A stretch of DNA of 64,000 nucleotides from Hyphomicrobiales bacterium (GTDB lineage: Bacteria > Pseudomonadota > Alphaproteobacteria > Rhizobiales > Rhizobiaceae). Under the pieces are notes generated by a model, which worked only from the letters and a program-made list of their open reading frames with translations, did no database searches and had not been told where the DNA came from. The position numbers were made by a program, and so were the translations under genes. Shown here in pieces: positions 59,137 through 62,404 of this stretch (position 1 is the first letter of the stretch; each line of letters opens with the position of its first letter). The stretch is taken from contig UCNE01000009.1 of the NCBI GenBank assembly GCA_900473685.1, positions 1-64,000 of the forward strand. The letters run 5' to 3'.

Positions 59137-59484
59137 ATGACCCAGGATCAACTCAGTACAACCCTTTCGGCGCTCGCCGATCCGACACGCCGGGCGATTC
59201 TGGCGCGGCTGGTCTTGGGAGAGGCGTCGGTCAACGAACTGGCCGAGCCTTTTGCGATGAGCCTGCCTGCCGTGTCCAAGCATCTGAAGGTGCTGGAGAA
59301 GGCGGGGCTGATCAGCCGTGGGCGGGAGGCGCAGTGGCGTCCCTGCAAGCTGGAGGCTGGGCCATTGAAAGATCTGAACGCCTGGCTCGATAACTATCGG
59401 CAATTTTGGGAGGAGAGTTTCGACAAGCTGGACCTCTACCTGCAAAAACTTCAAAAGGGAGATGGAAATGAACGCAAGAGCTGA
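59137..59484 (+). CDS. ArsR family transcriptional repressor
   Basis: A 115-residue winged-helix regulator: LADPTRRAILARLV (about 12-25) and the recognition segment MSLPAVSKHLKVLEKAGLI (about 45-63). There are no Cys residues for a classical metal site, so it is probably not a metal sensor. ArsR genes coupled to SRPBCC genes are common; the ligand is unknown. The 3' end overlaps the next gene by 17 bases. Confidence 0.93.
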   Translation: MTQDQLSTTLSALADPTRRAILARLVLGEASVNELAEPFAMSLPAVSKHLKVLEKAGLISRGREAQWRPCKLEAGPLKDLNAWLDNYRQFWEESFDKLDLYLQKLQKGDGNERKS

Positions 59485-59956
59485 CGTGGTCCCGGCCGAC
59501 AAAGCCAATCTTGTCCTTGCCCGGACATTCAATGCCCCTGCGGCGCTGGTCTACAAGGTCTGGACCGATCCGTATCATCTGGCGCAATGGTGGGGGCCGC
59601 ACCACTTTACCAATCCGGTCTGCGAGGTCGATCTGCGGCCTGGCGGCGTCATCCGCATCCACATGAAGGGGCCGGACGGCCAGATGTATCCGTCCAACGG
59701 CGTCTTCAAGGAAATCGTCGAGAACCAGCGCCTGGTCTTTACCAGCACCTATGACAATGAAGACGGCATCACCATGCTCGAAGCGCTCAATACGGTGACG
59801 TTTACGGAGAAAGACGGCAAAACCGAGATGACCCTGCATGCGCAGGTGCTGAGGGCAACCGAAGCTGTTCTGCCCGCGCTCGATGGCATGGAGGAAGGCT
59901 GGAGCCAGAGCCTCGAAAAGCTCGCAGCGGTCATCGCCACCGTCTCGGCTGCCTGA
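59468..59956 (+). CDS. SRPBCC (AHSA1-like) domain protein
   Basis: A 162-residue START/SRPBCC-fold protein with the AHSA1 signature: RTFNAPAALVYKVWTDP, WWGPHHFTNPVCEVDLRPGG and EGWSQSLEKLA at the end. The fold binds hydrophobic ligands in a deep cavity. AAAGGGAG 7 bases before the ATG at 59468 supports that start over 59462. It is co-transcribed with ArsR and is the likely target of its control. Confidence 0.92.
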   Translation: MNARADVVPADKANLVLARTFNAPAALVYKVWTDPYHLAQWWGPHHFTNPVCEVDLRPGGVIRIHMKGPDGQMYPSNGVFKEIVENQRLVFTSTYDNEDGITMLEALNTVTFTEKDGKTEMTLHAQVLRATEAVLPALDGMEEGWSQSLEKLAAVIATVSAA

Positions 59957-59974
59957 AATCCTTACTACCCAACA

Positions 59975-60009
59975 TGCCCCTGACGTCCGCAACGGGCGCT
60001 TCAGGGGCA
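59975..60009 (+). promoter_or_regulatory. intercistronic stem-loop between the two SRPBCC genes
   Basis: A perfect 9-bp stem TGCCCCTGA (59975-59983) with TCAGGGGCA (60001-60009) and a 17-base loop, 18 bases past the upstream stop. It is followed by pyrimidine-rich sequence but not a T run. It may attenuate transcription into the second gene or stabilise the first. Confidence 0.55.
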
Positions 60010-60039
60010 CTTATTCCCTTACGCAACAGGAACCTGAAT

Positions 60040-60576
60040 ATGCTGAAAATTCTACTGATTATTCTTGCCGTCATCGTCGTGCTTCTGCTTGCCGTGGTCG
60101 TCTTCGCATCCACCAAACCAGACACATTCCATGTCGAGCGCAGTGTCACCATCAATGCCCCGCCGGAAAAGATCTTCCCGCTGATCAATGACTTCAAGCA
60201 GTGGCAGGCCTGGTCGCCCTACGAAATGAAGGACCCGGCGATGAAGCGTACCTACGATGGTGCGACAGGTGGTCAGGGTGCCGTCTACAGCTGGGACGGC
60301 AACAAGGATGTCGGCGCTGGCCGGATGGAAGTCACTGAAGCGACGCCGTCCTCGAAGGTTGCGATCAAGCTCGACTTCATCCGTCCCTTCGAAGGCCATA
60401 ACGTCGCCACGTTCACGCTTTCGCCCGCGACACAAGGTACGGCGGTCACTTGGGCGATGGATGGACCGAGCCCGCTCATTGCCAAGATCATGGGCCTGTT
60501 CTTTAACATGGACACGATGATCGGTGGCGATTTTGCCCAGGGACTGCAAAACCTCAAAGCCATTGCCGAAAAGTAA
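60040..60576 (+). CDS. membrane-anchored SRPBCC family protein
   Basis: A 178-residue protein: an N-terminal span (about 2-24) followed by an SRPBCC/polyketide-cyclase-like domain (HVERSVTINAPPEKIFPLINDF, WSPYEMKDPAMKRTYDG). The anchored form differs from the soluble paralogue upstream. The ATG at 60040 has CAGGA 9 bases upstream. It lies 83 bases after the first SRPBCC gene; co-transcription is likely but a stem-loop intervenes. Confidence 0.88.
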   Translation: MLKILLIILAVIVVLLLAVVVFASTKPDTFHVERSVTINAPPEKIFPLINDFKQWQAWSPYEMKDPAMKRTYDGATGGQGAVYSWDGNKDVGAGRMEVTEATPSSKVAIKLDFIRPFEGHNVATFTLSPATQGTAVTWAMDGPSPLIAKIMGLFFNMDTMIGGDFAQGLQNLKAIAEK

Positions 60577-60763
60577 GCGGCACATAAAACGGGAACCAAT
60601 GTTGGCCTGAGCCGTTTCCGTCATGAGGAGTGCGGGCCGTGCCAACCGGACCTGAGGGAGATGGAGAACGCGGAGATTTTTCCGGTTTCTCTTCGCGGCC
60701 AACGAAATGGCAGGCGAGCTTCTTACCCCTTCGGCCTCGTTCCTCGAATGCCCATGTGGAATT
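60577..60763 (+). ncRNA. candidate small RNA or long 3' leader ending at the 60764 terminator
   Basis: No protein gene fits this 187-base stretch. It contains a GAGAA..CGGA/TCCG..TTCTC hairpin (about 60664-60693) and ends in a very strong terminator. It is either the 3' untranslated region of the SRPBCC operon or an independent small RNA. I see no clear promoter of its own, so the call is tentative. Confidence 0.3.
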
Positions 60764-60794
60764 GCCCCGGGACAACAGTCCCGGGGCTTTTTTG
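60764..60794 (+). terminator. strong rho-independent terminator
   Basis: A perfect 10-bp stem GCCCCGGGAC (60764-60773) with GTCCCGGGGC (60778-60787), a four-base loop AACA and a run of six to seven T. It ends transcription from the ArsR/SRPBCC side and isolates the following leader and VOC gene. Confidence 0.93.
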
Positions 60795-60861
60795 ATGCTC
60801 ATTTCGTGGTCGCCCAATGATTGCAATCCGGGCTTCTTTCAATTAGGAGAAAGGCGTCGAA

Positions 60862-61034
60862 AAAGGCAGGACCGGATATGGTAAGCCCGGTCCCTTGAGG
60901 GATACCCCAAGCTCTGCTCGAACATCTGTTCGAACCCGCGGCGTAGTCCCGGTGCATCCGCACCGGTCTGCGGCGGGCTGTGCCTTTGGATTCGTGCAAT
61001 CCGCCGTTTGTTTTTTGAAAAACGGAGATTGCAC
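60862..61034 (+). promoter_or_regulatory. structured RNA leader (riboswitch-like) of the VOC gene
   Basis: A closing stem AAAGGCA (60862-60868) with TGCCTTT (60981-60987) encloses four hairpins: GGACCGG/CCGGTCC (60869-60893), CTTGaGGG/CCCCAAG (60894-60911), TCGAAC/GTTCGA (60918-60933), and a two-part arm with CCGGTGC/GCACCGG (60949-60966). Downstream, CGGCGG/CCGCCG (60971-61006) plus a T-rich tail forms a terminator-like hairpin. An alternative stem GTGCAATC/GATTGCAC with CCGTTT/AAACGG (60994-61034) traps the CGGAG ribosome site. The last two structures exclude each other. This is the architecture of an aptamer and expression platform; no known riboswitch class is recognised. Confidence 0.6.
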
Positions 61035-61415
61035 ATGCGATTGAATCATATCGACCTTTATAGCGCCGACGTTGCTGCGACGGCGACTTTCTTCCTCGAT
61101 CATCTCGATTTTCTGCTGGTTGAGAAGCGCGGCAACGATCAGTTCTACCGTCTGACGGACGGTTTCGGAATGGTCTTCGTCGTCAGCCCGCCGATCGAAA
61201 AGCTCGGTGGCGCCGATCAGGTGGCGCTGGACGCCCAGACCTACCATATCGGTTTTCTTCTGGGGAGTTCCGCTGAGGTGGATGGCATATTCGGAAAGCT
61301 TGCAACGGCTGGCTTTTCTATGGCAGCGCCGCGAACCATGCACGGCGCCTATGCGTTCTATGCCGTCATTCCCGGCAATATCCTAGTGGAATTTGCCCAT
61401 CGCGCGGATGCCTGA
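61035..61415 (+). CDS. VOC (glyoxalase/bleomycin-resistance) family protein
   Basis: A 126-residue vicinal-oxygen-chelate domain: MRLNHIDLYSADVAATATFF at the N-terminus, with His5 as a likely first metal ligand, and GNILVEFAHRAD at the C-terminus supplying Glu. Family members are metal-dependent lyases, dioxygenases or drug-binding proteins; the reaction is not readable. Its Shine-Dalgarno CGGAG (61023-61027) lies inside a long stem of the leader, so translation is probably gated. Confidence 0.88.
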   Translation: MRLNHIDLYSADVAATATFFLDHLDFLLVEKRGNDQFYRLTDGFGMVFVVSPPIEKLGGADQVALDAQTYHIGFLLGSSAEVDGIFGKLATAGFSMAAPRTMHGAYAFYAVIPGNILVEFAHRADA

Positions 61416-61506: not shown

Positions 61507-62256
61507 TCAGTGTTTTGCGGCCTTGTCCTTTTGCCGCTTGTTGCGCGACAGCATGTTGAGCACCTCGACAAGCGCCGAGAAGGCCATGGCGGCGTAGACA
61601 TAACCCTTCGGCACATGCAGGCCCATGCCTTCGGCGATCAGTGTCGTGCCGATCATCAACAGGAAGGCCAGCGCCAGCATGACGATGGTCGGGTTCTTCT
61701 CGATGAAGCGGGCAAGCGGACCGGAAGCGACGAGCATGACGGTAACGGCAAAAATGACGGCGATGACCATGATCGGCAGGTGCGGCGTCATGCCGACGGC
61801 AGTGATGATGCTGTCGACCGAGAAGACCAGGTCGAGCAGCAGGATCTGGCCGATGGCGGCGCCAAAGCCGGTTGTCACCGAGCTGGCGATGAAATCCTGC
61901 TCATGATCGGCCGGATCGACATTGTGGTGGATTTCCTTGGTGGCCTTCCAGACGAGGAACAGGCCGCCGGCAATCAGGATCATGTCCTTCCACGAGAATG
62001 GATGGTCGAACACGGTAAAGACCGGCGTCGTCAGCTGGACGATCCAGGCGATGGTGCCAAGCAGCCCCAGCCGCATCAGCAGCGCAAGGCCGATGCCGAT
62101 CTTGCGCGCCTTTTCCCGGTGTTCGGGCGGCAATTTGTTGGTCAGGATCGAGATGAAGATCAGGTTGTCGATGCCAAGCACGACTTCCATGACGATCAGG
62201 GTGATCAGGGCAATCCAGGCAGTCGGATCTTGCATCAGGAGCAAAATATCCTGCAT
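61507..62256 (-). CDS. TerC family integral membrane protein
   Basis: A 249-residue TerC/YkoY-type protein with seven or so membrane spans. The conserved [15 protein letters not shown] with its acidic residues and the [17 protein letters not shown] repeat are the family signature. Members export manganese or protect metalated exported enzymes. The start at 62256 (MQDILL) has AAGGAA upstream; the longer frame to 62280 is less likely. Several TerC genes in bacteria follow a Mn riboswitch; I do not find that consensus here. Confidence 0.92.
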
Positions 62257-62404
62257 CGGGGGTGGTTCCTTCCTCGGCAATCAGCGTGCATATGCGGGAA
62301 CCCGCGCCGCCGGATGGCAACGCGGGTGTAATTGATGTTTCTTATGTATGTGGAAACGGCAGCAAGGCAAGCGTCGAGGGGGGCACAAACCGGCCGCGAT
62401 ACCG

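What the first reader, a model, noticed from the sequence alone, without database searches (positions are those of the whole stretch)
60862..61034. Riboswitch-like leader: multi-helix domain, terminator-like hairpin and buried ribosome site
A 7-bp closing stem encloses four hairpins, and the 3' part can fold in two exclusive ways: a GC terminator stem with T-rich tail (60971-61016), or a 14-bp stem (60994-61034) that traps the Shine-Dalgarno of the VOC gene. The terminator strand 60971-60976 also competes with the fourth arm of the multi-helix domain. This coupling is what a ligand-controlled RNA needs. I recognise no known class, so it may be a new one, possibly sensing the VOC enzyme's substrate. 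The alternative is a separate small RNA ending at about 61016.
Basis: partly seen in the sequence, partly recalled or inferred. Interest (0 to 1): 0.8.

Follow-up and report, generated by a model that had tools for sequence, protein, structure and literature searches.

The report
New riboswitch candidate before detoxification genes
The leader of a small enzyme gene in a soil bacterium is a conserved RNA switch that matches no catalogued RNA family, recurs in many proteobacteria in front of enzymes and pumps of the kind that act on aromatic toxins and antibiotics, and may sense such a compound to switch them on.

Summary
60855-60977 is a structured RNA without a match in Rfam 15. Its covariance model finds it in 39 of 397 genomes of the order and 11 of 398 of the phylum, own genome included, and a pattern scan in many named alpha- and betaproteobacteria. 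On 100 sequences 29 of 36 pairs change on both sides, covariation score 0.540 against 0.186 shuffled. The gene directly downstream is nearly always one of four kinds: two VOC families, ABM monooxygenase, FAD aromatic hydroxylase; rarer are NmrA, SDR and Tet-family efflux. P0 competes with P4, and forcing it eases opening of the Shine-Dalgarno in 80 of 96 leaders, beyond a shuffled control in 69 of 80. Best reading: a new riboswitch-class candidate acting on translation, probably ON, for an aromatic polyketide- or quinone-like compound. Ligand, direction and in-vivo control are untested. Termination near 61016 is not a general feature.

The parts
60855..60977 (+). Conserved RNA domain (P0, P1, P2, P3, P4)
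   Evidence: Models R1 and R2 match 60855-60985; covariation on 57 and on 100 sequences
60856..60859 (+). P0, 5' strand GUCG; pairs with 60939-60942
   Evidence: 97.8% of cells paired in 100 sequences; pair types GC, UA, AU, GU at the fourth pair; 99.1% in an alignment made without P0
60939..60942 (+). P0, 3' strand CGGC; overlaps the P4 5' strand
60869..60893 (+). P1 hairpin with conserved loop letters GGUAAGC
   Evidence: 98.4% of cells paired, 5 of 7 pairs changed on both sides; the 80 pattern-found loci were selected for part of these letters
60894..60911 (+). P2 hairpin
   Evidence: 88.6% of cells paired, 5 of 5 pairs changed on both sides
60912..60917 (+). Junction CUCUGC between P2 and P3, partly conserved (60914 C 0.95, 60916 G 0.94)
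60918..60933 (+). P3 hairpin (variable in length)
   Evidence: 72.4% of cells paired, 5 of 5 pairs changed on both sides; not proposed by RNAalifold
60935..60977 (+). P4: lower part 60935-60938 with 60974-60977, upper part 60942-60946 with 60968-60972 and 60949-60955 with 60960-60966; exclusive or pseudoknotted with P0
   Evidence: Upper part 89.6 and 90.9% of cells paired, 11 of 11 pairs changed on both sides; lower part weaker, 65.2%, 1 of 4 pairs
60971..60976 (+). CGGCGG of the P4 3' strand; can pair with 61001-61006 instead
   Evidence: sequence; length test supportive in the VOC1 group only
61001..61006 (+). CCGCCG: 5' arm of the Shine-Dalgarno hairpin and alternative partner of the P4 3' strand
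60994..61034 (+). Hairpin that sequesters the Shine-Dalgarno
   Evidence: MFE fold; SD opening cost 9.25 kcal/mol with P0 forbidden, 4.18 with P0 formed
61024..61027 (+). Shine-Dalgarno GGAG
61035..61415 (+). Regulated gene: 126-aa VOC (glyoxalase/bleomycin resistance/dioxygenase) protein
   Evidence: PF00903, 31.8 bits against a cut-off of 20.6; nearest solved chain 1xqa

Best explanation
60855-61034 is the leader of a new riboswitch-class candidate that controls translation. In the resting mRNA P4 is formed, the next segment pairs with the Shine-Dalgarno, and the gene is OFF. P1-P3 closed by P0 are transcribed first; a ligand that locks P0-P3 takes away the 5' strand of P4, the freed P4 3' strand pairs with the 5' arm of the SD hairpin, and the ribosome site opens (ON). 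In leaders of the second VOC group the SD lies in the P4 3' strand itself, a shorter form of the same logic. Shown: conserved covarying structure, conserved gene context, computed coupling of P0 to SD access. Inferred: that a small molecule is the signal, that it switches ON, and that it is an aromatic polyketide- or quinone-like compound removed by the encoded enzymes and pumps.
For: Covariation: 30 of 36 pairs with both-sided changes on 57 sequences, score 0.489 against 0.174 shuffled and at most 0.104 when slid; 29 of 36 on 100 sequences, 0.540 against 0.186; RNAalifold proposes P0, P1, P2 and P4 on that alignment, 21 of 25 pairs compensated. No Rfam match. Gene context: 101 of 108 matches precede one of four families on the same strand; in 97 leaders the start codon is 129-218 nt after the motif start. 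Coupling: P0 makes SD opening easier in 80 of 96 leaders, harder in 6, same in 10; 69 of 80 exceed the mean of their own 8 shuffled controls. Direction: P0 is favoured in transcripts cut after its 3' strand in 21 of 29 VOC1 and 31 of 34 FAD leaders. Ligand: nearest solved relatives are rifampin monooxygenase and polyketide oxygenases for the FAD group, anthrone monooxygenase and ActVA-Orf6 for the ABM group; Tet-family MFS genes in L053, L069 and L188.
Against: No ligand was tested. P0 costs a median of about 9-12 kcal/mol in the full leader, so the ON state needs a strong ligand or folding before P4 is made. In cut transcripts P0 is favoured in only 6 of 17 ABM and 5 of 16 VOC2 leaders, and in the window itself its probability is 0.42. 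P4-lower covaries in 1 of 4 pairs only. The alternative P4 3'-strand helix is longer than in 90% of shuffles in 16 of 27 VOC1 leaders but 4 of 17 ABM and 0 of 34 FAD leaders, where it has a mismatch. Six leaders go against the model. The energy model cannot score a P0+P4 pseudoknot.
Confidence: 0.6

Rival explanations
1. Riboswitch of opposite sign: P0 and P4 coexist as a pseudoknotted aptamer; the ligand stabilises both, the SD hairpin forms, and the gene is switched OFF.
For: Conserved letters CCC, G and C (60935-60937, 60940, 60942) lie at the P0/P4 crossing; P4-upper covaries strongly; the full leader already favours P4.
Against: Forcing P0 opens the SD in 80 of 96 leaders; an OFF switch fits poorly with efflux and detoxification genes (inference).
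Confidence: 0.18
2. A cis-regulatory leader that binds a protein or a small RNA rather than a small molecule.
For: Conserved structure alone does not identify the ligand; the first genes differ in kind.
Against: The same RNA occurs in many genera and on plasmids before unrelated gene families, so any protein partner would have to be shared by all hosts (inference). No search for such a partner was made.
Confidence: 0.12
3. Leader-peptide attenuation: ribosomes stalled by an antibiotic on a short upstream frame rearrange the leader.
For: Resistance-like genes; an xTGGT string, mostly in the P1 loop, is present in 65 of 100 motifs, and 33 of 100 hold a closed ATG/GTG frame of at least 5 codons.
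Against: ATGGTAAG is in 7 of 100 and no start position is shared by all; conservation follows the helices, not codons.
Confidence: 0.05
4. RNA thermometer or general stress-responsive SD hairpin.
For: The SD is buried in a hairpin.
Against: A thermometer needs no 120-nt covarying multi-helix domain with near-invariant loop letters.
Confidence: 0.03
5. A separate small RNA ending at about 61016.
For: T-rich stretch 61007-61016.
Against: Not listed by the terminator scan; a T-run occurs in 17 of 97 leaders; the RNA stays directly before a start codon on the same strand.
Confidence: 0.02

Closest known systems
yjdF riboswitch (azaaromatic compounds)
   Same: Works alike as proposed here: a translational ON switch for aromatic compounds (openings of the abstracts of PMC4793209, PMC9142559 and PMC10987639 seen in the listing).
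   Different: No match to any Rfam model, the yjdF motif being in Rfam by recall; found mainly in Firmicutes before yjdF (abstract opening), whereas this RNA is in Proteobacteria before oxygenases, reductases and pumps.
Guanidine riboswitches
   Same: Switch on removal of a toxic compound, including by exporters (abstract opening of PMC7736828).
   Different: Different sequence and structure (no Rfam match) and different target genes.
Alphaproteobacterial leader RNAs of Corbino et al. 2005 (SAM-II and four others)
   Same: Structured leaders found in Agrobacterium and relatives (abstract opening of PMC1273637).
   Different: No Rfam match here; that all five are in Rfam is recalled. Gene contexts were not compared.
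Atu_At1 sRNA (RF02496)
   Same: Lies just upstream, at 60630-60737.
   Different: Separate family with a terminator of its own at 60764-60793.

Membership tests
Riboswitch (general kind) | Conserved covarying structure in the leader | tested here: met
Riboswitch (general kind) | Same strand, directly upstream of a coherent set of genes | tested here: met
   101 of 108 matches before four families; domains rare in the own genome: 39 VOC, 5 ABM, 25 FAD_binding_3 matches
Riboswitch (general kind) | Exclusive folds that link the conserved domain to the ribosome site | tested here: met
   in silico only: 80 of 96 leaders, 69 of 80 beyond own control
Riboswitch (general kind) | Purified RNA binds a small molecule without protein | not testable with these tools
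   needs in-line probing or SHAPE
Riboswitch (general kind) | The ligand changes expression of the downstream gene | not testable with these tools
   needs a reporter
Any Rfam 15 family, yjdF and guanidine riboswitches included | Match to the family's covariance model | tested here: not met
   Gathering thresholds: window and 19 loci. Low thresholds: the window stretch gave only chance-level overlaps (chrB-b E 1.6, mir-4766 E 4.4, Atu_Ti4 E 8); 20 loci gave none over the motif
Transcription attenuator with intrinsic terminator | Conserved stem followed by a U-run before the gene | tested here: not met
   T-run in 17 of 97 leaders

The most novel reading that the evidence does not exclude
A first natural riboswitch class for aromatic polyketide- or quinone-type toxins (tetracycline-, anthrone-, rifamycin- or naphthoquinone-like): a modular RNA alarm that soil and plant-associated proteobacteria place before whichever enzyme or pump removes the compound, and that travels on plasmids with it.
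Probability: 0.3. Interest if true: 0.92.

Novelty: new member of a known kind. Interest (0 to 1): 0.8.

Why it matters
Natural riboswitches for antibiotic-like or phenolic toxins are hardly known (my knowledge). This RNA is widespread, has a clear covarying core and an explicit switching model, and its gene context points to a group of ligands that can be bought and tested. It links a candidate RNA sensor to Tet-family efflux and rifampin-monooxygenase-like genes of environmental bacteria and to a plasmid cassette, so it bears on how such genes are switched on without a protein regulator.

Tried and rejected
Rejected: the closing stem 60862-60868 with 60981-60987 as a conserved part; a terminator near 61016 as the general mechanism; membership of an Rfam family; chance structure; a link to Atu_At1. 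A leader peptide is not supported but not fully excluded. Led nowhere: blastn of the window leader against plasmids (no match); a contiguous-helix length test of the alternative P4 pairing, which helped only in the VOC1 group.

Dropped and biased rows. The pattern asks for letters of the 5' end and of the P1 loop, so their conservation in those loci is partly by selection; model-found loci are free of that. Of 118 alignment rows 10 were dropped before the gene census (6 weak second matches, 4 repeats of a place); five of the 108 left look like one genome met twice (L054/L026, L056/L027, L110/L023, L111/L021, L113/L030; equal scores). A7 used 57 chosen well-aligned sources; A8 used 100 sources that mostly had a match before and is fitted to a model that holds P0. 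Of 116 leaders a start was called in 103, 97 were kept with a Shine-Dalgarno and 96 tested; L080 and L183 were put in the VOC1 group by the start pattern although their genes differ. Genes of the 16 later loci were named by eye. My note says L008 lacks the RNA; that was a strand error, L008 has it. Search tallies include the own genome.

Full report
What is there. The window lies in a genome of 5.5 Mb in 49 contigs. The leader before a 126-aa VOC gene (61035-61415; PF00903) folds at -91.4 kcal/mol, z -4.86 against 200 shuffles. Rfam 15 gives nothing at gathering thresholds at 60855-61034; its one match in the window is the sRNA Atu_At1 at 60630-60737. At a lax threshold only chance-level matches overlap the leader (chrB-b E 1.6, mir-4766 E 4.4, Atu_Ti4 E 8).

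Finding relatives. By DNA search the leader is in 3 of 26 genomes of the genus, own genome included. The VOC protein was found in 11 of 199 genomes of the family, own included; diverged copies of the RNA lie before it in G096, G178, G217, G054 and G152, while the core pattern is absent from the loci of the other five. A model from seven sequences (R1) matched 27 of 397 genomes of the order at E 0.001 and 4 of 385 of the class at E 0.01. By my count of their titles these come from 31 named genera, such as Rhizobium, Bradyrhizobium, Mesorhizobium, Methylobacterium, Sphingomonas, Caulobacter, Paraburkholderia, Variovorax, Massilia, Chromobacterium and Rhodanobacter. A refined model (R2) matched 39 of 397 genomes of the order (16 of 142 genera) and 11 of 398 of the phylum at E 0.001. 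The RNA is widely but patchily spread, with one match in the own genome.

Structure. On A7 (57 sequences, aligned with R1, which held P1-P4 but not P0) 30 of 36 pairs show changes on both sides, 89.4% of cells are paired, the score is 0.489 against 0.174 for shuffles and at most 0.104 when slid; P0 is 99.1% paired, 2 of 4 pairs changed on both sides. On A8 (100 sequences, aligned with R2, which holds P0 but not P4-lower) 29 of 36 pairs, 87.1% of cells, score 0.540 against 0.186; for the count of pairs changed on both sides 12 of 500 shuffles reach the observed value, for the other measures none. RNAalifold on A8 proposes P0, P1, P2 and P4-upper, not P3, with 21 of 25 pairs compensated. P0 joins 60856-60859 to 60939-60942 and encloses P1-P3; its fourth pair is G-C in 82, U-A in 6, A-U in 3, G-U in 2 and unpaired in 7 of 100 sequences. 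Read by a pattern in 107 sequences, 98 form all four P0 pairs and 9 lack one. P4-lower, which crosses P0, is the weakest helix: 65.2% of cells, 1 of 4 pairs.

Gene context. Among 108 matches the downstream gene on the same strand falls in VOC type 1 in 30, ABM in 19, FAD monooxygenase in 39, VOC type 2 in 13, and none of these in 7. The seven: NmrA (L036) and DUF4440, just under its cut-off (L080); SDR (L053) followed by an MFS gene; a Tet(A)-family-like MFS gene (L069; 417.7 bits, below the 475 cut-off); a small membrane protein by eye (L032); and two loci cut by the record end (L088, L104). Sixteen further loci add, by eye, nine VOC type 2, two ABM, one VOC type 1, one NmrA, one MFS-like frame that looks broken (L176), one small membrane protein (L179) and one quinone-reductase-like gene (L186). 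On plasmids a query from L069 found 10 records; R2 matches 4 of 5 fetched stretches, L192 not. In Pantoea dispersa the RNA precedes an SDR and a TCR/Tet family MFS gene between two IS903-type transposases. Nearest solved relatives: rifampin monooxygenase and polyketide oxygenases for one FAD protein, anthrone monooxygenase and ActVA-Orf6 for one ABM protein, proteins of unstated function for the VOC types. In the own genome these domains give 39 VOC, 5 ABM and 25 FAD_binding_3 matches, many of the last short, so the association is not chance.

How it most likely works. For 96 leaders I computed the energy needed to free the Shine-Dalgarno with P0 formed and with its 5' strand kept unpaired. 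P0 made it easier in 80, harder in 6, and within 0.3 kcal/mol in 10; medians go from 6.70 to 3.87 (VOC1), 7.11 to 4.04 (ABM), 9.05 to 6.99 (FAD), 5.56 to 1.33 (VOC2); the window from 9.25 to 4.18. With the segment between P4 and the SD shuffled, the mean effect falls from -2.68, -3.23 and -2.36 to -0.31, -0.10 and -0.16 (VOC1, ABM, FAD), and 69 of 80 leaders beat the mean of their own 8 shuffles (VOC2 was left out of this control because its SD lies in P4). The sequence shows why: the P4 3' strand has an alternative partner in the 5' arm of the SD hairpin (window 60971-60976 with 61001-61006). A contiguous-helix length test supports this partner in VOC1 (16 of 27 leaders above 90% of shuffles) but not in ABM (4 of 17) or FAD (0 of 34); in FAD leaders both strands are nearly invariant and pair with a mismatch. 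In transcripts cut after the P0 3' strand P0 has a probability above 0.5 in 21 of 29 VOC1, 31 of 34 FAD, 6 of 17 ABM and 5 of 16 VOC2 leaders, and 0.42 in the window. In the full leader P0 costs a median of 9.2, 9.1, 11.6 and 8.9 kcal/mol, so a ligand, tertiary contacts or early folding must hold it. This is the ON model. An OFF model with P0 and P4 together as a pseudoknot is not excluded, because nearest-neighbour folding cannot score it.

What is known. Rfam at gathering thresholds on 19 loci and at E 3 on 20 loci shows nothing over the motif. Eight literature searches listed no report of such an RNA; there I saw listings and abstract openings only. I saw the abstract and passages of PMC11109978 ('oxygenase' and 'Rhizobi' 0 times in the main text) and passages of PMC2864571 ('monooxygenase', 'glyoxalase', 'quinone' 0 times). 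Supplements and most subscription papers could not be read, and the paper I looked up as the 2017 motif collection is not held (its content is recalled). So the claim of novelty rests mainly on Rfam.

Verdict. A real, conserved, cis-acting RNA (near certain); a riboswitch of a new class (likely); ON with a toxic aromatic ligand (plausible and directly testable).

Noticed in passing
60630-60737 and 60764-60793: Rfam sRNA Atu_At1 (RF02496, 108 bits) on the + strand, followed by a strong terminator, just upstream of the leader.
   Followed up: partly
59137-60576 (+); L005 900-1276: ArsR-type regulator, AHSA1 and polyketide-cyclase-like genes upstream of the leader; in L005 an ArsR-like frame, seen by eye, also ends shortly before the RNA.
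   Followed up: partly
61507-62280 (-): TerC-family gene converging on the VOC gene; its nearest NCBIfam models are subfamilies named for riboswitch control, all below their cut-offs.
   Followed up: no
L188 (Pantoea dispersa plasmid NZ_CP045217.1) 3500-5624: The RNA heads an SDR and TCR/Tet-family MFS operon between two IS903-type transposases.
   Followed up: partly
L083 457-583 (-): A copy before an ABM gene in an assembly labelled Mycobacterium sp. ENV421, outside Proteobacteria; transfer or contamination was not checked.
   Followed up: no
L176 1501-1646 (-): The downstream MFS-like frame looks broken; described only.
   Followed up: no
L186 2001-2125 (-): A weak member (37.8 bits) about 145 nt before a quinone-reductase-like gene.
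   Followed up: no
A9, FAD-group leaders: The segment GCUCCGGUCGRAC before the Shine-Dalgarno is nearly invariant in 32 FAD-group leaders although untranslated, more than simple pairing would need.
   Followed up: partly
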